NCBI GenBank assembly: GCA_018699935.1 | Contig: JABISF010000075.1 | Location: forward strand, 1 to 64,000 | Origin: Flavobacteriaceae bacterium | GTDB taxonomy: Bacteria; Bacteroidota; Bacteroidia; Flavobacteriales; Flavobacteriaceae | Direction: 5' to 3' | Length of the DNA stretch: 64,000 nt | Part shown: in pieces, positions 15,023-26,108 of the stretch | Numbering within the stretch: position 1 is the first letter of the stretch | Layout: every line of letters starts with the position of its first letter | Program-made: the position numbers and the translations under genes | The notes under the pieces: model-generated | Database searches by the model: none | Told to the model about the DNA's origin: nothing | What the model saw: only the letters and a program-made list of their open reading frames with translations

Positions 15023-17706
15023 ATGAAAGCTTATGTTCCCATTATTGCATTCACATTATGCACATTTTTTGCCATTGCCCAAGATATAGAGGGTGTGGTA
15101 GTAAGCGATTCAGGAGATCCAATTCCTGGAGTAAACGTAGTAGAAAAGGGGACTCAAAACGGAGTAGTCACAGATTTTGATGGAAAATTTACCATCACAG
15201 CTGCTCCCGAGTCAACTTTAGTTTTTAGCTATGTGGGTTTTGAAACCCAAGAACGTGTTGCAGGTTCCTCTCCATTGCGAATAACACTAAGCAGTGGTCT
15301 CGCATTATCGGAAGTATTTTTAGTCGGCTCTAGAAATGCAAAACGGTCGAGCACAGATACGGCCGTACCTGTGGATGTAATTGATGTTCAGGGCGTTTCA
15401 TTGGTGACCGGAAAAGTAGAAGTCAATGATTTTTACAATACGCAGCCCCTTCTTTTAATGCCACTAAACAATCTGGTTCGGACGGTGCCGATCATATTGT
15501 TCCCGCTTCTTTGAGAGGTTTAGGTCCGGATCAAACCTTGGTATTGATTAATGGAAAAAGAAGACATCAATCTTCCTTGGTCAATATTTTTGGTACACGC
15601 GGTAGAGGAAATTCAGGAACGGATTTAAATGCCATTCCTTCCTCTGCGATCAAAAGAATAGAAGTGCTTCGAGACGGTGCTTCCGCTCAATACGGCTCGG
15701 ATGCTATTGCAGGAGTTATCAATATCGTATTAAAAGACAATACCGACGGTTTTACTGGCGGGCTCACCTATGGTGGCTACAGTACCAATGTGGGTGAAGG
15801 ATGGGCAGAAGAATCCGGAGAAACACTCTATAATGTACAAGGTAAAAACCGATTGGACGGCAAAGACAAAAATTACGATGGAGAAACCGTTAAGGTAGAT
15901 TTAAACTACGGATTAAAACTCAACGACAAAGGCGGTTATGCCAATTTTGCAACTGAATTTCTTTCTCGAAACAATACCCTTCGTCCCGGATTTTCATGGC
16001 GAAAAGGATATGGAAGCGCAGGTATTTCCGGTTTTAACTTTATGATCAATTCATCATTACCCTTGAGTGATGACACAGAATTGTACTTGTTTGGAGGAAA
16101 AAACTACAGAGACACCAATGCCTATGCTTTTTCTAGAAGCAGTTTTGCCGATGGTGATAATCGTTCGGTTCCCTCGCTGTATCCCAATGGCTTCACCCCA
16201 AGAATCACTTCAGTGATTTCGGATAATTCCTTTTCAGCCGGAATCCGACATACCATGAAAAATGGATGGCGTTTTGACTTTAATAACAGTTATGGAAAAA
16301 ATAATTTTCATTATTATATATTGGACACCAACAATGCTTCTCTAAAGGATGCTTCTCCCACCGACTTCGATGCCGGAGGACATTATTTGTCTCAAAATAC
16401 GACATCAATTGATTTTAGTAAATATTTTGAAGAAAGTGCAGCGGGAATCAACTTGGCGTTTGGCTTGGAATATCGAACTGAAAATTTCGGCATTTTTTCC
16501 GGCGAAGCGGCTTCCTATGGGCTCTATGATGAAGACGGCTTGATCATCACCAATCCTTCCTTGCAAACCGTTGCCACCGATGCCAATGGAGATAGCCTTC
16601 CCGGAGGCTCGCAAGGTTTTCCCGGCTATAGTCCCTCCAATGTGGTGGACCGCAATCGATCCAATTTTGGAACCTATTTGGATACTGAAATCAACCTGAG
16701 TTCCAATTTTCTAATTAGCGGTGCATTGCGTTTTGAAAATTATAGTGATTTTGGAAACACCCTCAATTTTAAAGTTGCTAGTCGTTTAAAAGTCAATAAT
16801 GATCTGTCGTTTAGAGGATCCTTATCCACAGGCTTTCGCGCCCCTTCTTTGGCACAATTGTACTATAATTTGGTATTTAACAATATCGTCGCCGGAAAAT
16901 CGGTACCCTCCTTGCTTTCTGCGAACAACAGTACCATAACAAAAGCTTTTGGTATTCAGCAACTTACAGAAGAAAAAGCAGTCAACGGCAGTATAGGTTT
17001 CACCTATACCAAGGGCGCTTTCAAAGCCACTGTAGACGCCTATTCGATTTCGGTAAAAGATCGGATCATATTGACCGATAATTTCTCAGATCAAACGGTT
17101 TTAGGTCCCTTGAATGTTGATGCTGCTCAATTTTTTGCCAATGGAGTGGACACCAAAACTAAGGGAATTGACATCGTTTTGGGCTATGACATTCGCCTTG
17201 GAACGGATCAATTGCTAAAATTGGTGGCGGTAGGAAACTTTAATGATTTAACCATTGATAAGATCAATAATGAAGCATTGAATGAATATACATTTTTCAG
17301 TCCTTTTTCAAGAGCTTATTTGGAAGCGGCTGCCCCCGATCATAAGTTGGGCTTTAATTTAAGCTATGTGGGGTCAAAATTTAATGCAGCCTTATCGCTC
17401 ACCAATTTTAGCGAAGTGCGTCTACAGGACTTTCAATGGGTGGACACCCCACCGACCACTAAAGCAGAGGCCGATGCGTTGTATGCTAATGCCACCGATG
17501 TGTATGCAGCTAAAACAGTAGTTGATTTCTCTTTGGGTTATGAATTATCCGATCAATTGTCATTACAAATAGGCACCAACAACCTCTTGAACACCTATCC
17601 AACGCCCCAATTTGACGGGTGGACAGACCAAGGAGGATTTTCAGATTCTGTACAAATGGGTTCGGACGGTCGCTATGTGTTTAGTCGTTTAAATTTTAAA
17701 TTTTAA
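15023..17706 (+). pseudogene. TonB-dependent outer-membrane receptor, interrupted by a one-base frameshift
   Basis: Outer-membrane receptor for TonB-driven import. The first frame (15023-15514) gives a signal peptide ending FAIAQ and a CarboxypepD_reg-like beta-sandwich (DIEGVVVSDSGDPIPGVNV and on). It then breaks after KVEVNDF. The second frame (15511-17706) continues with the plug motif, including IKRIEVLRDGASAQYGSDAIAGVINI, and the full barrel, ending in FKF. Reading the bases after the break one position earlier gives FLQYAAPSFNATKQSGSDGAD, exactly the missing plug sequence. One T is therefore absent from the run at 15430-15434 (five Ts where six are needed). Everything else looks intact (about 894 residues). 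The gene ends 7 bases before the lysine 6-dehydrogenase-like gene. Substrate unknown. Confidence 0.85.
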
Positions 17707-17713
17707 TAATCAA

Positions 17714-18775
17714 ATGAAGAAAATTGTAGTCTTAGGAATGGGCAAAGTGGGTACTTTGGTTGGCACTTTATTGCATAAAAATTTTGAAGTAACCGGTGTG
17801 GATCAAAAACCCCCACACTATGAGTATAAACTTCCGTTCCCGGTGGAAATATGTGATGTAAGCGACAAATCGGCATTGCAACCGCTTTTGCAAAAATATG
17901 ATGCCGTAGTTTCTGCATTGCCCTATTTTTTAAACAAACGAGTGGCGGATTTGGCACTCGAATTGAATTTGCATTATTTTGACTTAACCGAAGATGTTGA
18001 CACTACCAAACACATCCAAAAACTGAGCAAAAAAGCCACTAAGGTATTTGCCCCTCAATGTGGTTTGGCTCCTGGTTTTATTGGGATTATTGGCAGTGAT
18101 TTGTCCACCTACTTTGATCGCCTTCGCGACATTGAGTTACGTGTGGGAGCTTTGCCACGTTATCCCAACGGGCAAATGGCGTATTCATTTACTTGGTCAC
18201 CGCATGGGGTCATCAATGAATACATCAACGATGCAGAAGCCATTCACAATGGAAAAAAGAAAATGGTTCCTTCTTTGCAAGGCTTTGAGTATATCAATAT
18301 CGAAGGACAAGAATTTGAGGCTTTTACCACCTCCGGGGGCTTGGGCACCATGTGCGATACTTTCGAGGGAAAAGTAGATACTTTAAATTATAAAACCATC
18401 CGTTATCCCGGTCATGGAAAATTGATGCGTTTTTTGATGTACGAACTTATTTTGAAAGAGGATAAAGATCTTTTGGAACGCATTTTAAGCAATGCCAAAC
18501 CTCCGGTGGATGAGGATGTGGTTTATGTATATGCGGTTGTAGAAGGATGGAAAAATGAAACTTTAAGTAGAAAAGAATATTTTAAGGCCTTCTATCCCAA
18601 AGAAATTCAAGGTTTTGTATGGCGCGCCATTTCTTGGACCACTGCAGCTTCTATCGCTGCCGTAGTTGAAATGGTAGCCGCTAACAAATTACCCCAACAA
18701 GGATTTATTAAACAAGAAGAAATTTCTTGCTCAGATTTTTTTAAAACCGACTCAGGAAGCTTATTTTTAACCTAA
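17714..18775 (+). CDS. lysine 6-dehydrogenase / saccharopine dehydrogenase-like oxidoreductase
   Basis: NAD(P)-dependent oxidoreductase of the saccharopine dehydrogenase fold, 353 residues. The dinucleotide loop VLGMGKVGTLVG is at residues 5-16. The middle reads APQCGLAPGFIGI, then VPSLQGFEYI, EAFTTSGGLGTMCDTF and YKTIRYPGHG. This order and spacing are those I remember for lysine 6-dehydrogenase, which oxidises the epsilon-amino group of L-lysine to give 2-aminoadipate 6-semialdehyde (or its cyclic form). Saccharopine dehydrogenase is the alternative, but no lysine-ketoglutarate reductase gene is nearby. The next two genes encode later steps of lysine breakdown, which supports the role. It lies 7 bases after the TonB receptor and 12 before the DUF1338 gene. 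Confidence 0.78.
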   Translation: MKKIVVLGMGKVGTLVGTLLHKNFEVTGVDQKPPHYEYKLPFPVEICDVSDKSALQPLLQKYDAVVSALPYFLNKRVADLALELNLHYFDLTEDVDTTKHIQKLSKKATKVFAPQCGLAPGFIGIIGSDLSTYFDRLRDIELRVGALPRYPNGQMAYSFTWSPHGVINEYINDAEAIHNGKKKMVPSLQGFEYINIEGQEFEAFTTSGGLGTMCDTFEGKVDTLNYKTIRYPGHGKLMRFLMYELILKEDKDLLERILSNAKPPVDEDVVYVYAVVEGWKNETLSRKEYFKAFYPKEIQGFVWRAISWTTAASIAAVVEMVAANKLPQQGFIKQEEISCSDFFKTDSGSLFLT

Positions 18776-18787
18776 TTATTTTTAAAC

Positions 18788-19696
18788 ATGCACTTAAACG
18801 AAACCACCGTTTTAACCTCTATTTTACAGGGGTTGTTCACCACTTATGCCGAGCGTGTTAAGGATGTGAACAAAATCACCAATGCCTTGATTGACCGAAA
18901 AATCGTCGCAGGCCAAGAAGAGATCATCAATGATCATATTGCTTTTCGCACTTTGGGAGTTCCAAATTTAGGGATCGCTTCATTTGAAAAAATTTTTCTT
19001 ACCCATGGCTATCGCAAAATGGGATCGTATCATTTTGATGCTAAAAAATTAGACGCCAATTGGTATGCCCCCCCTACGGAAGATCTTCCAAGAGTTTTTA
19101 TTAGTGAATTATGTGTGCACGAACTTTCTGAAAACGCGCAACATATTATAAAAAAATATACTTCAAAAATTGATGTCGATCCGGTGGATGCACTGGATTT
19201 ACATAATGCGGAAGAAGTTATTGATTATTTACACCGTCCTTTGTGGGAACTCCCCACTTTGGCGGATTACAATGCGTTATTGGAAGAAAGCGAATATGCC
19301 GCTTGGGTAATCTACAACCGATACTATCTCAACCATTACACCATCAGTGTTCATGAACTTAAGAAAGGGTTAAATACTTTGGATACGTTTAATGATTTTT
19401 TATTAGATTTAGGTGTTGCATTAAACAATTCCGGAGGCCTTATTAAGGTGAGTGCTGATGGTCTTTTGCGTCAAAGCAGTTCTGTTGCTGAGCAACATAT
19501 CGCTACTTTTGCCGGAGGTGAAAAACGATCCATCGCTGGAAGTTATGTTGAGTTTGCCGAACGACTGCCCTTGCCTCAATATGCGCATTTGCCAAATCAT
19601 ATCTTGACACGTGCCCAGCGTCGTGAAGGCTTTGAAACTCAGAATGCAGACAAAATTTTTGAAAGCACCTTCACCTCACAACTCAAACAGCATTGA
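18788..19696 (+). CDS. DUF1338 / HglS-like 2-oxoadipate dioxygenase/decarboxylase
   Basis: A 302-residue protein of the DUF1338 family. The characterised Pseudomonas putida member HglS is a metal- and oxygen-dependent enzyme that turns 2-oxoadipate into D-2-hydroxyglutarate and CO2 in lysine catabolism. The expected VOC-type metal ligands can be placed: His50 in NDHIAFRT, His183 in YYLNHYTISVHEL and Glu255 in SYVEFAERL. It is shorter than the Pseudomonas enzyme (over 450 residues by memory), like other short members. The position between a lysine 6-dehydrogenase-like gene and an antiquitin-type aldehyde dehydrogenase fits the same pathway. The family call is firm; the exact reaction is inferred from family and context. 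Confidence 0.82.
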   Translation: MHLNETTVLTSILQGLFTTYAERVKDVNKITNALIDRKIVAGQEEIINDHIAFRTLGVPNLGIASFEKIFLTHGYRKMGSYHFDAKKLDANWYAPPTEDLPRVFISELCVHELSENAQHIIKKYTSKIDVDPVDALDLHNAEEVIDYLHRPLWELPTLADYNALLEESEYAAWVIYNRYYLNHYTISVHELKKGLNTLDTFNDFLLDLGVALNNSGGLIKVSADGLLRQSSSVAEQHIATFAGGEKRSIAGSYVEFAERLPLPQYAHLPNHILTRAQRREGFETQNADKIFESTFTSQLKQH

Positions 19697-19756
19697 TTCC
19701 CTGTTTTTGATTTAATTCCTTACATTGATTTCTAAATCCATTATTAAAAACATTTT

Positions 19757-21289
19757 ATGTCACACCAAGCATTACTCCAATCCTTACACATTGAAAACAA
19801 TCAAAAGGGCTGTTCTTCCGGACAACAATGGATGGGCAATGGAAAAACACTAAACGCTGAGAGTCCGGTAGACGGATCGTTTTTGGGAAGTGTAACCACT
19901 TGTACGGTGGAAGATTATGAAACAATAGTGACCCAGGCAGAAACTGCCTTTGAAACCTTTCGGTCGATTCCGGCACCCAAACGTGGCGAAATGGTTCGTC
20001 AATTGGGAGAAAAACTTCGTCTCCACAAAGAAAATTTGGGGCGATTGGTTTCACTAGAAATGGGAAAATCGCTACAGGAAGGATATGGTGAGGTTCAAGA
20101 AATGATCGATATCTGTGAATTTGCCGTGGGCTTGTCCCGTCAATTACATGGACTGACAATGCACTCCGAACGCCCCGCCCACAGGATGTATGAGCAATAC
20201 CATCCTTTGGGCTTGGTGGGTGTGATTTCGGCCTTTAATTTTCCCGTTGCCGTTTGGAGCTGGAATGTCGCTTTGGCCTGGGTGTGTGGCAATGTATGCC
20301 TTTGGAAACCCAGTGAAAAAACACCCATGTGTAGCATCGCTTGTCAAAAATTAGTAGCAGAAGTCCTACAGGAAAACAACCTTCCCGAAGGGATTTCTTC
20401 TGTTCTTAATGGTGGTGCAGAAGTTGGAAAATGGTTGGCAGAAGATCGACGCATTGCACTGCTATCTGCTACGGGTTCTACCCGTATGGGGAAAGATGTC
20501 GCCCAACGCGTGGCTGCTCGATTGGGTAAAAGTTTGTTGGAATTGGGCGGTAACAATGCGATTATCATTACCCCGGATGCCAATCTGGATATTGCCCTCA
20601 GAGCCGCTGTGTTTGGTGCCGTGGGGACTTGCGGTCAGCGTTGTACCTCCACAAGAAGACTTATTGTCCATGCCGATTGTTTTGAAACCGTTAAAAATAA
20701 ATTGATCAAAGCCTATCAACAAATTCGAATTGGAGATCCTTTGGACGCCAACAATCATTTGGGGCCTTTGATTGATGCGCAAGCCGTGGAACAATACAGC
20801 AAAGCACTTCAAGCCGTTGAAGAACAAGGGGGTGTATGGATTGTTGAAGGAGGTGTATTAAAAGGCTCTGATTACAAAAGCGGATGTTATGTTAAACCAG
20901 CGGTAGCAAGCCTGAGTAACGACGCTGCAATTGTCCAACAAGAGACGTTTGCGCCCATCCTTTATCTGATTCGCTATGAAGGCGGGGTAGAACAAGCCAT
21001 TACAATTCAAAATGACGTAAAACAAGGGCTATCCTCTTCCATAATAACCAATAATTTGCAAGAGGCAGAAGCTTTCCTTTCGCACTCGGGCAGTGACTGT
21101 GGAATTGCCAATGTGAATGTCGGCACTTCTGGAGCTGAAATTGGGGGTGCCTTTGGAGGAGAAAAAGAAACTGGTGGCGGCCGTGAAAGCGGATCCGATG
21201 CTTGGAAAGCCTATATGCGAAGACAAACCAATACAATCAATTATTCAGCCGATCTTCCCTTGGCGCAGGGCATACAATTTGACCTTTAG
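19757..21289 (+). CDS. amaB: ALDH7-type 2-aminoadipate 6-semialdehyde dehydrogenase (antiquitin family)
   Basis: NAD-dependent aldehyde dehydrogenase, 510 residues, oxidising 2-aminoadipate 6-semialdehyde (in equilibrium with piperideine-6-carboxylate) to 2-aminoadipate. The general base Glu262 lies in LLELGGNN and the nucleophile Cys296 in TCGQRCTSTRR. The C-terminal half carries the hallmark of the ALDH7/antiquitin group: NVNVGTSGAEIGGAFGGEK, GGGRESGSDAWKAYMRR, and the ending DLPLAQGIQF. These match human ALDH7A1 closely as I remember it. Third enzyme gene of the cluster, 60 bases after the DUF1338 gene. The symbol follows the Pseudomonas lysine-pathway enzyme. Confidence 0.9.
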   Translation: MSHQALLQSLHIENNQKGCSSGQQWMGNGKTLNAESPVDGSFLGSVTTCTVEDYETIVTQAETAFETFRSIPAPKRGEMVRQLGEKLRLHKENLGRLVSLEMGKSLQEGYGEVQEMIDICEFAVGLSRQLHGLTMHSERPAHRMYEQYHPLGLVGVISAFNFPVAVWSWNVALAWVCGNVCLWKPSEKTPMCSIACQKLVAEVLQENNLPEGISSVLNGGAEVGKWLAEDRRIALLSATGSTRMGKDVAQRVAARLGKSLLELGGNNAIIITPDANLDIALRAAVFGAVGTCGQRCTSTRRLIVHADCFETVKNKLIKAYQQIRIGDPLDANNHLGPLIDAQAVEQYSKALQAVEEQGGVWIVEGGVLKGSDYKSGCYVKPAVASLSNDAAIVQQETFAPILYLIRYEGGVEQAITIQNDVKQGLSSSIITNNLQEAEAFLSHSGSDCGIANVNVGTSGAEIGGAFGGEKETGGGRESGSDAWKAYMRRQTNTINYSADLPLAQGIQFDL

Positions 21290-21305
21290 TACGTCATATT
21301 TTCTT

Positions 21306-21313
21306 TATCTTCG
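21306..21313 (+). promoter_or_regulatory. possible -7 box (TATCTTCG) upstream of rhomboid gene
   Basis: TATCTTCG differs from TAnnTTTG at one position and lies 11 bases before the rhomboid start codon, so the message would be almost leaderless. Only a candidate. Confidence 0.3.
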
Positions 21314-21324
21314 TCAAAAAAAGA

Positions 21325-21981
21325 ATGGGAAATTCTCTTCCGCCGGTTGCTATTGCAATCCTTTTAGCGAATGTTATCGTTAGCTACAAAGGGTTTAATG
21401 ACGAGATTTTTTTTAACCGCTTCCACTTTCAAGTGCGAAAAATCAAACAGGGCGAATACATTCGTCTTTTAAGCTCCGGCTTTTTGCATGTGGGGACTTC
21501 GCATCTCATTTTTAATATGATCACCTTTTATTTTTTTGCAGCTCCTGTGATCTACAGCATTGGGAACATTCCTTTTTTGGTGGTTTATTTTGGAAGTCTT
21601 TTGGCAGGGAATGCTTTTGCCAATTATTTTCATCGTGATGAACCCTTTTATACAGCGGTGGGAGCGAGTGGTGCAGTTACGGGTATTTTGTTCAGTTCCA
21701 TTTTGTTATATCCTGCGCTGGAACTCTATATGTTTTTCATACCGATTCCCATTCCCGGCTATTTGTTTGCAGTGGGTTATTTAGCCTATACTTTGTATGG
21801 CATGAAAAAACAAAACGATACGATAGGCCATACGGCACATTTTGGAGGAGCTTTGGGGGGTATATTAATTACCTTGATTTTTGCCCCAGTTGCGATTTAT
21901 GAATCACAACTCACTTTGGGCTTATTGACCGCTACTTGTGCTTTGGTGGGGTATATCCTTTTCCGCTCAAGAAAAAAATAA
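21325..21981 (+). CDS. rhomboid-family intramembrane serine protease
   Basis: Inner-membrane protease of the rhomboid family that cuts substrates within or near the membrane. The 218 residues have about six hydrophobic segments. The catalytic serine is Ser115 in VGASGAVTG and the catalytic histidine is His172 in HTAHFGGALGG. HLIFNM, with the conserved Asn, lies near residues 60-65. It follows the aldehyde dehydrogenase by 35 bases on the same strand but has a possible promoter box of its own. No functional tie to the lysine genes can be shown. Its stop lies two bases from that of the convergent TlpA-like gene. Confidence 0.92.
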   Translation: MGNSLPPVAIAILLANVIVSYKGFNDEIFFNRFHFQVRKIKQGEYIRLLSSGFLHVGTSHLIFNMITFYFFAAPVIYSIGNIPFLVVYFGSLLAGNAFANYFHRDEPFYTAVGASGAVTGILFSSILLYPALELYMFFIPIPIPGYLFAVGYLAYTLYGMKKQNDTIGHTAHFGGALGGILITLIFAPVAIYESQLTLGLLTATCALVGYILFRSRKK

Positions 21982-21982
21982 A

Positions 21983-23089
21983 CTAGAGCCCGTTGAGTAA
22001 TTCGTCTACTTTTTGATAGAGCGCTTGGCCTCTTAAGTCTCGAGCAATGATGGTTCCTTCGCTATCGAGTACAAAAGTAGCAGGAATGCTGGTAACCTGG
22101 TAGGTTTTAGCGATGGGCTCTTGCCAATGTTTTAGATTAGAGACTTGTTCCCAAATCAAACCATCATCTTCGATGGCTTTAACCCATTTGTCTTTTGTTT
22201 TATCAAGTGAAACTCCTAAAATCTTTAACCCTTGGTTTTGGTGTTTTCTGTAGAGTTGCACCAAATTGGGGTTTTCAAATCGACAAGGACCACACCAACT
22301 GGCCCAAAAATCAATGATGGTGATGGTTCCCAACTGATTGGCTAAAGAAATCATTTCGCCTTGGGGATTGGGAGCTTCAAAAATAGGTGCCAATTTGCCT
22401 ATTTCTGCTTTGGGAGGGGCACTTAATGCTTCCTGAATATTTTTTCCAGAAACGGTATTCTTGATTCGGTCACTAAATTGGTCGAAGATGCTTTTTATTT
22501 CCTCCAGAGGTAGGGATTGTGATCCTAAAAAACGCTCTAAAATTAAAACCGAAATAAAAGAATCCGGTTTGGTTTTAATGAAATCAACTTCGTAATCTTT
22601 GATTTGATTTTGTACTTCTAAATATTGTTCTTGCAAGTCTTGAAACAGCAAAGACTCGTTCAATATTTGTGCTTGTTGCATGTCTTTGGCAATTCCATTA
22701 ATGGATTTGACATAGATTTTTGTGTCGTTTTTATATTGCATAAAATCATCATTGGAAAGGGTGCCTTTCACAATTGACTGTTGCAAGCTATCTTTAAAAA
22801 TGTCAACAGAAATAGTTCCGCTTTCAGCAATAAAAGGGAGACTTCCTCCAATTTCTTCGATTTGCAAAAAGTTGATGTCAGGTATTTCTATCATGCCTTC
22901 AAATTGAAAAGCTCCAGCATTCACTTCGGCAGAATCAATCACTTGGGGTTGGTTGTTGGCATTGGCAATGATCCGATACACCTTTTTTCCATTGGCAAGG
23001 TCAACGGCTCCTTTGATCTTAAAAGTTCCAGGAGATTGGCAGGCAAATAGAAGCAGCCCAGCTAGGACTAGTTGAATATATGTTTTCAT
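21983..23089 (-). CDS. TlpA-like thiol-disulfide oxidoreductase lipoprotein with N-terminal DUF4369-like domain
   Basis: A 368-residue periplasmic lipoprotein (lipobox LLFACQ near residue 16). The N-terminal half resembles the DUF4369 beta-domain common in Bacteroidetes TlpA-like proteins, followed by a helical linker. The C-terminal half is a thioredoxin fold with the active-site WASWCGPCRFE near residues 264-274 and the cis-Pro segment VTSIPATFVLD. Likely role: reduction of periplasmic disulfides, for instance in cytochrome c maturation or cell-wall stress. Transcribed divergently from the D-2-hydroxyglutarate dehydrogenase-like gene and convergent with the rhomboid gene. Confidence 0.88.
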   Translation of the reverse strand: MKTYIQLVLAGLLLFACQSPGTFKIKGAVDLANGKKVYRIIANANNQPQVIDSAEVNAGAFQFEGMIEIPDINFLQIEEIGGSLPFIAESGTISVDIFKDSLQQSIVKGTLSNDDFMQYKNDTKIYVKSINGIAKDMQQAQILNESLLFQDLQEQYLEVQNQIKDYEVDFIKTKPDSFISVLILERFLGSQSLPLEEIKSIFDQFSDRIKNTVSGKNIQEALSAPPKAEIGKLAPIFEAPNPQGEMISLANQLGTITIIDFWASWCGPCRFENPNLVQLYRKHQNQGLKILGVSLDKTKDKWVKAIEDDGLIWEQVSNLKHWQEPIAKTYQVTSIPATFVLDSEGTIIARDLRGQALYQKVDELLNGL

Positions 23090-23180
23090 AGTAAAATTTT
23101 ACGCGATAAAAGTAAGGAATAAAAAAGAATTGAGAAACTTATCCGTATTTTAGTCTTCCCAAATAAACAATAGCGAACGT

Positions 23181-26108
23181 ATGGAAACAACAGCAAAATT
23201 AAACTCAAAATTGATGCTTTTACAGCGGCAATTGGAGGGAGAACTTTTGTGGGATTCACTACATAAAAAATTATATGCCACAGATGCCTCTGTCTATAAA
23301 ATGGAACCTTTGGCAGTGGCTTTTCCAAAAAACGAAACCGACTTGAAAGCGCTAATCGTTTTTGCGCAAGAGTATCAATTGAGTTTAATTCCTCGAACCG
23401 CCGGAACCTCTTTGGCAGGGCAATGTGTTGGGACGGGCATCGTGGTGGATGTTTCCAAGTATTTTACCAAAATATTGGATTTGGATACAGAGAAAAAAAC
23501 CGTGACCGTTCAGCCCGGTGTGAATCGCGATGCACTGAATATTTATCTGGCGGAAAAGGGATTGTTTTTCGGCCCTAACACGTCCACTTCTAAATATTGT
23601 ATGTTGGGAGGAATGGTTGGGAACAATTCTTCAGGAACGACCTCCATTCGTTACGGTGTAACTCGAGACAAAGTGGTGCGTATGGAAACCTTGTTGAGTG
23701 ATGGTTCTAAAGCCATTTTTGAAGAATGTGATCAAAACCTGCTGCAACAAAAACTGGAACAGGACAGTTTGGAAGCGTCCATTTACAAGATGTTTTTGGA
23801 GGAACTTTCCGATAAAAAAGTTCAATCTCATATCATAAACGATTTTCCGCATGCCAGCGTTCATCGCAGAAACACGGGCTATGCAGTGGATAAATTATTA
23901 GAACAGCAACCGTTTCAGCCAAAGGGCAGCGGACTTAATCTTTCAAAATTGTTAGCTGGAAGCGAGGGAACCTTAGCTTTTACAACTGCCATTACATTGG
24001 ATTTAGAACCGCTGCCGCCCCAGCACAGTGTGATGTTGGTGTTGCATTTTGATAGCATCAAAAATGCAATGCAGGCGGTCGTCCCTGTCATGAAACACCA
24101 TTTGTTCACCTGCGAGTTGATGGACAAAACCATTTTGGATTGTACGAAAGATCATCCCGGATATCAAAAAAACCGATTTTTTATTCAAGGCGACCCCAAA
24201 GCAATTTTGCTACTAGAGTTACGACATGCAGATACGGAGCAATTAAAAAAGGATCTAGAAGCCCTGAAACAAACCGCCGAAACCGATGGTTTCTGTTATG
24301 CTGCGGTTCCTTTGTGGGGAGAAGAAATTGAAATGGCCAACACACTACGTCATGCAGGCTTGGGTTTGTTGGGGAATATAGTGGGGGATCACAAAGCGGT
24401 GGCGTGTATTGAAGACACGGCCGTACCTTTGGAGCAATTGGCGGACTATATCGAAGCATTTCAAGCGTTGATGCAACAGTTTCAACAAGAAGTTGTGTTT
24501 TATGCCCATGCCGGTGCCGGAGAACTTCATTTGCGCCCGATTTTAAATTTAAAAACAAAAGAAGGAATTCAGGATTTTAGGGCGATTACCCTCGCCGTTG
24601 CAAAATTGGTCAAGAAGTACAAAGGCTCCTTGAGTGGGGAACACGGGGACGGAATTGTGCGCTCCGAGTTTATCCCGATCGTGGTGGGTGCTGAGAATTA
24701 TGCCTTGTTTAGGCGAATTAAAAAAACTTTTGATCCCCAGGGGATCTTCAATCCTGGAAAAATTGTAGATCCATTTCCCATGGATGAAAATTTGCGTACT
24801 TCAACAGCAGTAAAAGCAGAAATCTCAACCTTGATGGATTTTTCAGCGGATCAAGGCTTGCTGCGTGCAGTAGAAAAATGCAATGGAGCCGGCCAATGTC
24901 GCTCGGTGCTCCCCTCGGGTACACTTTGTCCCAGCTATCGTGCCACTCGAGATGAAAAGCATAACACTCGAGGACGTGCCAATGTATTGCGCGAAGTTCT
25001 CCTATCCAATACGGCTGTCAATGCGTTTGATGATGCCGCGCTAAAAGAAGTCTTTGATTTGTGTTTAAGCTGTAAGGCCTGCGCTACGGAATGTCCCAGC
25101 AGTGTTGATATTGCAAGCTATAAAGCAGAATTTTTATATCAATATCAAAAGACTCATGGCAGCTCATTACGGAATAAATTATTTGCCTATAATGGAAAAA
25201 TAAATGAAAAAGTATATCCGTTTCGTGGGGTGCAGAACCTGCTCTTACGGCAAAGTTTTTTCGGAAAGCTGTTCAAAAAAGCATTGGGAATTGCTCCAAA
25301 ACGAGCTTTTCCAGTATTAGAAAAACCTTTACATAAATCAATAAAAATCAACGCTATAAACACAAATAATAAAAGTGTTTATTTATATTTAGACGAGTTT
25401 ACAAACTATCAAGAAACGCACCTTGGAAAAACGGCTATTGCGCTACTTGAAGGTCTGGGATATCACGTAAATATATTGCCCCCAACAGAAAGTGGACGCA
25501 CCTATATTTCGAAAGGTTTTTTGGAGCAAGCCAAAAAATGTGCCGACCGTAATGTCGCCTTATACGGCGATTTAATTTCAGAAAAGCATCCGCTCTTGGG
25601 GATAGAACCATCAGCCATCTATACTTTTTCTGACGAATACCCAAAATTGACTTCGGAGGTGGAAAAGGCTAAAAAACTAGCCGCAAATTGTTTTCCTATC
25701 GAAACTTTTCTAGCAGCAGCACTGAAAAAGGGAAATTTAAAAGCGGATCAATTTCATGAGGCAACAAAAACCATTAAAATCCATGCGCATTGTTATCAAA
25801 AAGCCTTGGGGAATCCTGCGGATACCTTTGCATTGTTGAATCTTCCCGTGAATTACAAAGTAAGTCTTTTGAATACGGGCTGTTGCGGGATGGCGGGCTC
25901 CTTTGGTTATGAAGCAGAACATTATGAGGTCAGTATGAAAGTGGGGGAGGAACGCCTTTTTCCCGCTGTTCGAAAAGCCGACGCAAATGACGTTATTGCA
26001 GCGAATGGAACCAGTTGTCGCCATCAAATCAAAGATGGTACGGGACGTAAAAGTCAACACCCCATTGAAATTTTATACGATGCATTAGTTAAAAAAAACC
26101 CTAGCTAA
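23181..26108 (+). CDS. FAD-linked and 4Fe-4S oxidoreductase, probable D-2-hydroxyglutarate dehydrogenase (YdiJ-like)
   Basis: A 975-residue fusion of an FAD-binding (VAO/PCMH, GlcD-like) half and an iron-sulfur (GlpC/CCG-like) half. FAD-site segments are PRTAGTSLAGQC (about 71-82), GGMVGNNSSGTTSIRYG (about 143-159) and SGEHGDGIVRSEF. Two cysteine clusters follow: CNGAGQC with a later CPSY, and CLSCKACATECPSSVD. Near the end there is a CCG-type segment, LLNTGCCGMAGSFGYE. This architecture and length match E. coli YdiJ, reported as a D-2-hydroxyglutarate dehydrogenase. D-lactate dehydrogenase is the main alternative. D-2-hydroxyglutarate is the product of HglS-type enzymes, so a location 3.5 kb after the DUF1338 gene fits a lysine route ending at 2-oxoglutarate. 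Confidence 0.85.
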   Translation: METTAKLNSKLMLLQRQLEGELLWDSLHKKLYATDASVYKMEPLAVAFPKNETDLKALIVFAQEYQLSLIPRTAGTSLAGQCVGTGIVVDVSKYFTKILDLDTEKKTVTVQPGVNRDALNIYLAEKGLFFGPNTSTSKYCMLGGMVGNNSSGTTSIRYGVTRDKVVRMETLLSDGSKAIFEECDQNLLQQKLEQDSLEASIYKMFLEELSDKKVQSHIINDFPHASVHRRNTGYAVDKLLEQQPFQPKGSGLNLSKLLAGSEGTLAFTTAITLDLEPLPPQHSVMLVLHFDSIKNAMQAVVPVMKHHLFTCELMDKTILDCTKDHPGYQKNRFFIQGDPKAILLLELRHADTEQLKKDLEALKQTAETDGFCYAAVPLWGEEIEMANTLRHAGLGLLGNIVGDHKAVACIEDTAVPLEQLADYIEAFQALMQQFQQEVVFYAHAGAGELHLRPILNLKTKEGIQDFRAITLAVAKLVKKYKGSLSGEHGDGIVRSEFIPIVVGAENYALFRRIKKTFDPQGIFNPGKIVDPFPMDENLRTSTAVKAEISTLMDFSADQGLLRAVEKCNGAGQCRSVLPSGTLCPSYRATRDEKHNTRGRANVLREVLLSNTAVNAFDDAALKEVFDLCLSCKACATECPSSVDIASYKAEFLYQYQKTHGSSLRNKLFAYNGKINEKVYPFRGVQNLLLRQSFFGKLFKKALGIAPKRAFPVLEKPLHKSIKINAINTNNKSVYLYLDEFTNYQETHLGKTAIALLEGLGYHVNILPPTESGRTYISKGFLEQAKKCADRNVALYGDLISEKHPLLGIEPSAIYTFSDEYPKLTSEVEKAKKLAANCFPIETFLAAALKKGNLKADQFHEATKTIKIHAHCYQKALGNPADTFALLNLPVNYKVSLLNTGCCGMAGSFGYEAEHYEVSMKVGEERLFPAVRKADANDVIAANGTSCRHQIKDGTGRKSQHPIEILYDALVKKNPS

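What the first reader, a model, noticed from the sequence alone, without database searches (positions are those of the whole stretch)
15023..26108. Nearly complete lysine degradation route through 2-oxoadipate and D-2-hydroxyglutarate
Seen: a lysine 6-dehydrogenase/saccharopine dehydrogenase-like enzyme (17714-18775), a DUF1338 protein with ligands His50, His183 and Glu255 (18788-19696) and an ALDH7/antiquitin enzyme (19757-21289) in one run, then an FAD/Fe-S YdiJ-like dehydrogenase (23181-26108). Known: HglS-type DUF1338 proteins turn 2-oxoadipate into D-2-hydroxyglutarate, and YdiJ-type enzymes oxidise D-2-hydroxyglutarate. Inference: lysine -> aminoadipate semialdehyde -> 2-aminoadipate -> (aminotransferase not found here) -> 2-oxoadipate -> D-2-hydroxyglutarate -> 2-oxoglutarate. 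If the first enzyme is a true lysine 6-dehydrogenase, no saccharopine step is needed. I do not know this set to be described in Flavobacteriaceae.
Basis: partly seen in the sequence, partly recalled or inferred. Interest (0 to 1): 0.72.

Follow-up and report, generated by a model that had tools for sequence, protein, structure and literature searches.

The report
Lysine breakdown gene module in flavobacteria
A marine flavobacterium carries a three-gene module predicted to turn lysine into a central metabolite by a route known from Pseudomonas and plants, and related bacteria appear to reuse the same module with other starting enzymes.

Summary
LysDH, DUF1338/HglS and ALDH7 (17714-21289) form a tight module: LysDH is directly followed by HglS in 52 of 79 loci. 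The LysDH model matches solved L-lysine dehydrogenase best (Z 38.8, next 33.0). HglS keeps His50, His183, Glu255 and substrate-binding Arg54, as do all 82 short-form rows. ALDH7 passes the P6C-dehydrogenase cut-off. G253, of another family, has LysDH-HglS-ALDH7-YdiJ-like in one run; a Rhizobium plasmid has all of these plus an aminotransferase.

The weak link is the window's YdiJ-like gene: it fails the YdiJ equivalog cut-off (585 vs 1350 bits), lies in the general flavobacterial clade, sits nearby through older synteny and gives way in place to E. coli-type Dld in part of the genus.

Unexpected: three genomes of the window's family carry HglS-ALDH7-(SusCD)-GH-GH42-kinase/phospholyase-YdiJ-like, readable as a locus for glycosylated hydroxylysine from collagen. 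The module looks like a trunk with exchangeable inputs: a known pathway in a new arrangement.

The parts
17714..18775 (+). LysDH: predicted L-lysine 6-dehydrogenase (L-lysine to 2-aminoadipate 6-semialdehyde/P6C), 353 aa
   Evidence: Pfam PF03435+PF16653; best solved relative 3abi, P. horikoshii L-lysine dehydrogenase; VIA-align Z 38.8 vs 33.0 for the next entry; first gene of the conserved run
18788..19696 (+). HglS/DUF1338: predicted 2-oxoadipate dioxygenase/decarboxylase giving D-2-hydroxyglutarate, 302 aa
   Evidence: PF07063 202.1 bits; best solved relative 6w1k hydroxyglutarate synthase; His50, His183, Glu255 and Arg54 in 82 of 82 short-form rows (79 distinct at under 98% identity) and in E. 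coli YdcJ and Rhizobium HglS
19757..21289 (+). ALDH7: predicted L-piperidine-6-carboxylate / 2-aminoadipate-semialdehyde dehydrogenase, 510 aa
   Evidence: NF050084 811.1 bits, cut-off 730
23181..26108 (+). YdiJ-like FAD/Fe-S dehydrogenase, 975 aa: candidate oxidiser of D-2-hydroxyglutarate, substrate unsure
   Evidence: domains; 29% identity to E. coli YdiJ over nearly the whole length; below YdiJ equivalog cut-off, 585 vs 1350; general flavobacterial clade
21325..21981 (+). rhomboid-family gene 35 bases behind ALDH7; neighbour, no known role in the route
   Evidence: PF01694; same place in the genus regions read
21983..23089 (-). TlpA-like gene between the module and the YdiJ-like gene; not part of the route
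   Evidence: AhpC-TSA/DUF4369; same place in the genus regions read
15023..17706 (+). TonB-dependent receptor in two overlapping frames, 7 bases upstream of LysDH; no relative of it was found in the 19 other genus regions fetched, where LpxL is on that side; not counted as part of the route
   Evidence: Pfam CarbopepD_reg_2, plug and barrel; frame overlap 15430-15514; synteny; gap

Best explanation
The three adjacent genes are a catabolic module. [quoted passage not shown] ALDH7 oxidises it to 2-aminoadipate. An aminotransferase encoded elsewhere (best candidate AspB-like, G000:C52, locus L032) gives 2-oxoadipate. HglS converts 2-oxoadipate with O2 and Fe(II) to D-2-hydroxyglutarate. An FAD enzyme, the YdiJ-like protein in this genome and possibly Dld in some relatives, returns it to 2-oxoglutarate. 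No saccharopine step is needed. The family assignments, catalytic residues and linkage are shown; every substrate and the aminotransferase are inferred.
For: LysDH fold closest to 3abi. HglS ligands and arginine conserved in 82 of 82 short-form rows; the literature predicts that DUF1338 proteins with that arginine act on 2-oxoadipate (PMC7286885, sections 7 and 8 read). ALDH7 passes the P6C-dehydrogenase cut-off in the window and so do the four other ALDHs scanned (L253, L228, L224, L061). LysDH is followed directly by HglS in 52 of 79 loci, 38 of the 64 that I placed outside the genus. G253, of another family of the order, has LysDH-HglS-ALDH7-YdiJ-like as a four-gene run. The Rhizobium leguminosarum plasmid NZ_CP016288 carries HglS, ALDH, an aminotransferase, YdiJ (1461.7 bits, cut-off 1350) and LysDH side by side. 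All 15 HglS-bearing genomes (E up to 0.001) of the 296 sampled in the order also carry a YdiJ-like gene (E up to 1e-100), against 71 of 296 overall; outside the window's family 6 of 6 against 28 of 246.
Against: The window's YdiJ-like gene fails the YdiJ equivalog cut-off, is in the general flavobacterial clade rather than the HglS-linked one, and Dld is found instead of it in 14 of 38 genus genomes, never together with it. In 8 genus genomes LpxL sits directly beside HglS with no LysDH between, so lysine through LysDH cannot be the module's only input. In 17 of 79 loci neither HglS nor ALDH7 follows LysDH. No aminotransferase gene adjoins the module in the window. None of these proteins has been assayed as far as I saw.
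Confidence: 0.78

Rival explanations
1. The YdiJ-like gene is a general respiratory D-2-hydroxyacid dehydrogenase (D-lactate, or D-2-hydroxyglutarate from SerA) that has nothing special to do with the module; it lies nearby because LpxL, TlpA, YdiJ, AroC and DctA were already neighbours.
For: General clade; 43 of 50 same-family genomes carry such a gene, only 9 of 50 have HglS; G307 keeps DctA-AroC-YdiJ-TlpA-LpxL without the module between; E. coli-type Dld, model name D-lactate dehydrogenase (866.6 bits, cut-off 391), stands in its place in part of the genus.
Against: A separate branch of the same family is linked to HglS in G253, G113, G121, G061, G179, G212 and G252. G059, of the general clade, has it beside HglS with only an Lrp-type gene between. 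In G179 a SerB-SerA-like fusion lies between HglS and YdiJ-like. E. coli YdiJ is strict for D-2-hydroxyglutarate (PMC9504171, passages).
Confidence: 0.4
2. The module serves mainly semialdehyde from hydroxylysine or pipecolate, and LysDH is an optional extra input.
For: 8 genus genomes have HglS without LysDH beside LpxL and no Sacchrp_dh_C protein; no genus genome has a lysine 6-aminotransferase over the cut-off (0 of 38). APH-phospholyase-type fusions were read in the window's genome (L048) and in 6 of 6 other genus regions, 3 of them from LysDH-less genomes. Deinococcus proteolyticus has an FAD oxidoreductase in front of HglS-ALDH.
Against: In the window and in 52 of 79 loci LysDH itself leads into HglS (the loci were found with LysDH, so they favour it). 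The phospholyase half is nearest to an ethanolamine-phosphate phospholyase, so its substrate is open. In the genus the fusion is not linked to the module. The Deinococcus ALDH fails the P6C cut-off (361 vs 730).
Confidence: 0.2
3. The first enzyme is a saccharopine or carboxyspermidine dehydrogenase rather than a lysine 6-dehydrogenase.
For: Pfam names the domains after saccharopine dehydrogenase; public records call relatives 'saccharopine dehydrogenase family protein'.
Against: 353 aa, against 345-349 residues in the 3abi chains, 377-414 in the carboxyspermidine dehydrogenase-like chains and 435-449 in the saccharopine dehydrogenase chains; VIA-align Z 38.8 for 3abi against 33.0 or less and 32.0 or less for the two others; embedded with HglS, ALDH, aminotransferase and YdiJ in Rhizobium.
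Confidence: 0.08

Closest known systems
Pseudomonas putida / plant lysine catabolism through 2-oxoadipate and D-2-hydroxyglutarate (HglS, FLO7)
   Same: 2-oxoadipate to D-2-hydroxyglutarate by a DUF1338 protein with the HHE triad and the substrate arginine (PMC7286885, sections 7 and 8 read)
   Different: In P. putida the step belongs to D-lysine catabolism (start of abstract seen) and in plants, as I recall, the route starts with the saccharopine enzyme; here an L-lysine 6-dehydrogenase gene adjoins HglS and ALDH7. The short HglS is of the plant-like kind (best PDB match 6w1k). The paper gives about 15% identity between HglS and FLO7; the window's protein was not compared with the P. putida one.
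Rhizobium leguminosarum plasmid cluster NZ_CP016288:34116-43095
   Same: LysDH, ALDH (P6C equivalog), YdiJ and HglS in one cluster
   Different: Long-form HglS (463 aa), true YdiJ equivalog, an aminotransferase in the cluster, Lrp and LysR regulators; LysDH 43%, ALDH 54%, YdiJ 28% identical to the window's. Annotated only with generic names.
E. coli YdiJ D-2-hydroxyglutarate dehydrogenase
   Same: FAD + Fe-S + GlpC-like architecture, alignable over nearly the full length
   Different: 29% identity; window protein scores 585 against the 1350-bit equivalog cut-off
Pyrococcus horikoshii and Geobacillus L-lysine 6-dehydrogenases
   Same: Fold and size of the P. horikoshii enzyme; Tyr226, Thr228 and Arg230 match by spacing the modelled Tyr238, Thr240 and Arg242 of the Geobacillus enzyme (PMC6697735 passages)
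   Different: 25% identity to 3abi, which has Glu in place of the Tyr; the Geobacillus sequence was not at hand

Membership tests
L-lysine 6-dehydrogenase | Sacchrp_dh_NADP and Sacchrp_dh_C domains in a compact chain of about 350 aa | tested here: met
L-lysine 6-dehydrogenase | fold nearer to lysine dehydrogenase than to saccharopine or carboxyspermidine dehydrogenase | tested here: met
   Z 38.8, rmsd 2.5, 338 aligned (3abi) vs 33.0 or less; Foldseek ranks 1 and 2
L-lysine 6-dehydrogenase | residues binding the alpha-amino and alpha-carboxyl groups | tested here: inconclusive
   Tyr226 and Arg230 in 27 of 27 rows, Thr228 in 26 of 27, matched to the Geobacillus model by spacing only; 3abi and the second paralogue L239 have Thr and Arg but Glu for the Tyr
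L-lysine 6-dehydrogenase | activity with L-lysine and NAD(P)+ | not testable with these tools
   -
HglS / DUF1338 hydroxyglutarate synthase | PF07063 over cut-off | tested here: met
   202.1 bits, cut-off 25
HglS / DUF1338 hydroxyglutarate synthase | His-His-Glu metal triad | tested here: met
   His50, His183, Glu255 in 82 of 82 short-form rows
HglS / DUF1338 hydroxyglutarate synthase | 2-oxoadipate-binding arginine (HglS Arg74, FLO7 Arg64) | tested here: met
   Arg54 in 82 of 82 short-form rows and in the two long-form rows
HglS / DUF1338 hydroxyglutarate synthase | turnover of 2-oxoadipate | not testable with these tools
   -
L-piperidine-6-carboxylate / aminoadipate-semialdehyde dehydrogenase | NCBIfam equivalog NF050084 over cut-off | tested here: met
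   811.1 bits, cut-off 730
YdiJ D-2-hydroxyglutarate dehydrogenase | NCBIfam equivalog NF049975 over cut-off | tested here: not met
   585 bits, cut-off 1350
YdiJ D-2-hydroxyglutarate dehydrogenase | FAD_binding_4, FAD-oxidase_C, Fe-S and GlpC-like domains; conserved Arg/Lys and His/His/Glu/His of the superfamily | tested here: met
   Arg390, His443, His450, Glu487 and His488 in 54 of 54 rows, Lys405 in 52 of 54. Their role is recalled from human D2HGDH and, as I recall, shared with D-lactate dehydrogenases, so this does not settle the substrate
Complete lysine to 2-oxoglutarate pathway | 2-aminoadipate aminotransferase | tested here: inconclusive
   none linked; AspB-like L032 is 45% identical to the aminotransferase of the Rhizobium cluster. 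Of the 12 + 5 class I and class III places found (with overlaps) only L032, L033, L035, L044 and L048 were scanned; no 2-aminoadipate transaminase equivalog over its cut-off in the rows shown
Hydroxylysine kinase / phosphohydroxylysine phospholyase (novel reading) | APH kinase domain and phospholyase-type class III domain | tested here: inconclusive
   both domains present in L228, L234 and L048; nearest solved relative is ethanolamine-phosphate phospholyase 6tor, so substrate not settled

The most novel reading that the evidence does not exclude
HglS-ALDH7-YdiJ is a common trunk that bacteria join to different inputs. In three genomes of the window's family (G061, G212, G252) it forms a locus for glycosylated hydroxylysine from collagen: SusCD import (SusCD genes between ALDH7 and the glycosidase in two of the three), a YgjK-like glucosidase and a GH42 beta-galactosidase strip Glc-Gal from hydroxylysine, an APH kinase fused to a phospholyase makes 5-phosphohydroxylysine and then 2-aminoadipate semialdehyde, and the trunk carries it to 2-oxoglutarate. 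The window's organism has a related kinase-phospholyase fusion, so its module would take both lysine and hydroxylysine, and its LysDH-less relatives hydroxylysine only, with Dld acting on D-2-hydroxyglutarate in place of the YdiJ-like enzyme.
Probability: 0.35. Interest if true: 0.8.

Novelty: new variant of a known kind. Interest (0 to 1): 0.58.

Why it matters
It gives a testable route by which marine flavobacteria could return lysine carbon and nitrogen to central metabolism, using an oxygenase whose studied members that I saw in print are from Pseudomonas, E. coli and plants (PMC7286885). The in-place exchange of a YdiJ-like enzyme for Dld suggests either an unsuspected D-2-hydroxyglutarate activity of Dld or a different job for the YdiJ-like family. 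If the hydroxylysine reading holds, it would name a bacterial use of the collagen disaccharide unit; none of the titles listed by the two searches that bear on it is about such a locus.

Tried and rejected
Saccharopine route: rejected for this genus, since the 8 genomes with HglS beside LpxL have no Sacchrp_dh_C match, and in the 18 genomes with a match it lies beside HglS or in the window's LysDH (places held), with one extra in G023 (L239). The 8 genomes are 56-89% complete. Lysine 6-aminotransferase as the missing input: 0 of 38 genomes over the TIGR03251 cut-off. A broken LysDH in G020 (L067): the stretch is full of undetermined bases, so no conclusion. Tying LysDH strictly to the YdiJ-like gene: rejected, because G006 has LysDH with Dld and G029 has HglS and YdiJ-like without LysDH. 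G005, G013, G022 and G032 were not counted as lacking LysDH: the first three have HglS near a contig end, and G032 had no HglS match.

Reading position beside the module as proof for YdiJ: rejected after the tree. Order-wide LysDH matches (97 of 296) are mostly weak: only G000 and G253 exceed 500 bits, the next is 173. The YdiJ tree is a quick one; support for the seven-row HglS-linked branch is 83, so it is suggestive only, and my label in that call also held the window, L123 (linked to LysDH, not HglS), G059 and G307. Rows dropped before the HglS residue count: shorter than 240 aa, over 99% identical to the window, or identical to another row. The YdiJ order search scored at most 2 candidates a genome, so third copies are missed; that of G061 was seen only after fetching the region. 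Not tested: lysine 2,3-aminomutase, cadaverine or glutaryl-CoA routes and lysine epsilon-oxidase in this genome (genome searches spent). Literature: 10 searches. Lysine 6-dehydrogenase with DUF1338: 0 papers; hydroxyglutarate synthase with lysine and Bacteroidetes: 0. The library is partial. PMC7286885: passages and sections 7 and 8 read; PMC9504171, PMC6697735, PMC10413350 and PMC9007349: passages only; the rest listings.
Full report
What is in the window. All four enzyme genes named in the finding are present at the stated coordinates with the expected domains. LysDH, HglS and ALDH7 are separated by 12 and 60 bases; a rhomboid gene follows after 35 bases, then a TlpA-like gene on the other strand, the YdiJ-like gene, and two genes that I call aroC and dctA from their sequence (no family scan of these two). 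The window lies in a 2.17 Mb genome, 87.9% complete, in 85 contigs. Relatives with the same gene order have titles such as Flavobacteria bacterium MS024-2A and Flavobacteriaceae bacterium.

LysDH. The protein has the two saccharopine-dehydrogenase domains, but its best solved relative by sequence is 3abi. A model built from 27 window and locus sequences (mean pLDDT 90.7) matches 3abi, titled L-lysine dehydrogenase, first in Foldseek and at Z 38.8, rmsd 2.5 over 338 residues in VIA-align; the next entries are carboxyspermidine dehydrogenases (33.0 or less) and saccharopine dehydrogenases (32.0 or less). Tyr226 and Arg230 are present in 27 of 27 rows and Thr228 in 26 of 27. Their spacing equals that of Tyr238, Thr240 and Arg242, modelled as substrate-binding in the Geobacillus enzyme (PMC6697735 passages); but 3abi itself has Glu for the Tyr, and without the Geobacillus sequence this remains a lead.

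HglS and ALDH7. The DUF1338 protein is of the short, plant-like kind: its best PDB relative is 6w1k, hydroxyglutarate synthase. The metal ligands His50, His183, Glu255 and the arginine Arg54 are conserved in all 82 short-form rows collected here (79 distinct at under 98% identity), and in E. coli YdcJ and the Rhizobium long form. Thompson and colleagues predict that proteins with these residues act on 2-oxoadipate (PMC7286885, sections 7 and 8). ALDH7 passes the piperidine-6-carboxylate dehydrogenase cut-off, 811.1 against 730.

Conservation. In the genus, HglS is found in 30 of 37 genomes, one of them by a fragment. Of 19 genus regions fetched, 12 have LysDH in front of HglS (one, L067, only partly readable) and 7 have LpxL 62-147 bases from HglS with no LysDH between; G029 is an eighth such genome. 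In genome contigs, 79 loci with a LysDH relative were returned. LysDH is followed at once by HglS in 52 of 79 (in 32 of these ALDH7 comes next), by ALDH7 directly in 6, by neither in 17, and the contig ends in 4; for the 64 loci I placed outside the genus the counts are 38 (18 with ALDH7 next), 6, 17 and 3. Those with HglS next include records titled Flavobacteriaceae, Cryomorphaceae, Cytophagales, Bacteroidia, Jiulongibacter sediminis JN14-9 and Membranihabitans marinus CZ-AZ5. In L123, titled Saprospiraceae, LysDH lies beside a YdiJ-like gene.

Complete clusters elsewhere. In G253, another family of the order, LysDH, HglS, ALDH7 and a YdiJ-like gene follow each other without interruption, with a LysR-type regulator gene divergent upstream (L224:4310-11761). 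On a Rhizobium leguminosarum plasmid the whole route is side by side: HglS (PF07063, 550.8 bits), ALDH (NF050084, 798.2), a PLP aminotransferase, YdiJ (NF049975, 1461.7 over 1350) and LysDH, with Lrp and LysR genes. By DNA similarity the whole stretch is covered to 80% or more in 2 of 138 plasmid records with any match, one of them the query's own record. Two other plasmid LysDH relatives that I looked at with annotation (Ochrobactrum, Pseudochrobactrum) have no such cluster within 6-9 kb. The aminotransferase of the Rhizobium cluster is 45% identical to AspB-like L032 of the window's genome, my candidate for the missing step.

The D-2-hydroxyglutarate oxidiser. The YdiJ-like protein aligns with E. 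coli YdiJ at 29% identity but scores 585 against the equivalog cut-off of 1350. Among 296 genomes of the order, 15 have HglS (E up to 0.001) and 71 a YdiJ-like gene (E up to 1e-100); all 15 have both. Inside the window's family this says little (43 of 50 have YdiJ-like, 9 of 50 HglS). Outside it, 6 of 6 HglS genomes have it against 28 of 246, and these genomes are related in part. HglS and a YdiJ-like gene lie within 15 kb in G253, G113, G121, G059, G179, G212, G252, G061 and G307, and not in G037, G065, G138, G203 and G237, as far as the listed matches and the fetched regions go. In the tree, the linked copies of G253, G113, G121, G061, G179, G212 and G252 form one branch (support 83); the window, G059 and G307 copies belong to the general flavobacterial clade. 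G307 keeps DctA, AroC, YdiJ, TlpA and LpxL together without the module between. So in the window the YdiJ-like gene was probably there first, and its nearness is not evidence of function.

Exchange with Dld. In 38 genus genomes a YdiJ-like gene is found in 22 (a further match in G011, E 3e-4, was left out), an E. coli-type Dld (PF09330) in 14, both in none and neither in 2. FAD-oxidase_C is found in exactly the 22. In the 8 Dld genomes whose region was fetched, Dld stands between TlpA and AroC, where the YdiJ-like gene stands in the others (in G002 its frame has stops). G006 combines Dld with LysDH-HglS-ALDH7; G029 combines YdiJ-like with HglS-ALDH7 without LysDH. Not all Dld genomes showed HglS: of the 14, G011, G014, G019 and G027 had no match and G332 was not searched. 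Either Dld can serve D-2-hydroxyglutarate or the YdiJ-like enzyme serves another D-hydroxyacid. This is the sharpest open question.

Other inputs. In G061, G212 and G252 an Lrp-type gene is divergent from HglS and ALDH7, followed by (in G212 and G252) a SusC-type and a SusD-type gene, a YgjK-like glycosidase, a GH42 beta-galactosidase, an APH kinase fused to a class III aminotransferase-fold domain, and a YdiJ-like gene (SusC and SusD were scanned in G212 only; in G061 SusCD-like genes lie behind the YdiJ-like gene on the other strand). The aminotransferase-fold domain is nearest to ethanolamine-phosphate phospholyase 6tor (475 bits) and phospholyase 5g4i (294 bits), far above other class III enzymes (166 bits or less). 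From memory, human hydroxylysine breakdown uses an APH-type kinase and a phospholyase of this family to give the semialdehyde that ALDH7 consumes, and collagen hydroxylysine carries Glc-alpha-1,2-Gal; I recall that YgjK was crystallised with that disaccharide. The cluster fits such a substrate, but the phospholyase could act on ethanolamine phosphate. The window's genome has a two-domain fusion (L048, 40% identical to the L228 one), and 6 of 6 further genus regions read hold a fusion of about 1000 aa in a conserved, unlinked place; in the 3 of them scanned it has APH, M23 and class III domains. Deinococcus proteolyticus has an FAD oxidoreductase, HglS (56% identical) and an ALDH in a row, the ALDH below the P6C cut-off.

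Verdict. It is a known pathway in a new arrangement.

Noticed in passing
15023-17706: TonB-dependent receptor split over two overlapping frames (overlap 15430-15514, which holds a short run of T); could be an assembly error. It lies 7 bases upstream of LysDH, and LpxL holds that side in the other genus regions read.
   Followed up: partly
L061:3857-5545 (-); G006 L237:4994-6682 (-): E. coli-type Dld in exactly the place of the YdiJ-like gene in part of the genus; the two never occur together in 38 genomes.
   Followed up: yes
L228:561-18389, L234:576-18732, L233+L248: Candidate locus for glycosylated hydroxylysine: HglS, ALDH7, SusCD (two of three), YgjK-like GH, GH42, APH-phospholyase fusion, YdiJ-like.
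   Followed up: partly
L227:8934-10844: A HAD + D-2-hydroxyacid dehydrogenase + ACT protein (SerB-SerA-like fusion) between HglS and YdiJ-like in G179; SerA can make D-2-hydroxyglutarate from 2-oxoglutarate (PMC9504171, passages).
   Followed up: no
L251:5834-9559: Deinococcus proteolyticus plasmid: FAD oxidoreductase, DUF1338, aldehyde dehydrogenase in a row.
   Followed up: partly
L253:1117-10096: Rhizobium leguminosarum plasmid with LysDH, YdiJ, an aminotransferase, ALDH and HglS under generic names, between transposase and integrase genes.
   Followed up: partly
L239:3028-4167 (-): Second Sacchrp_dh_C protein in G023, 30% identical to LysDH, beside an ABC transporter ATPase gene; role unknown.
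   Followed up: no
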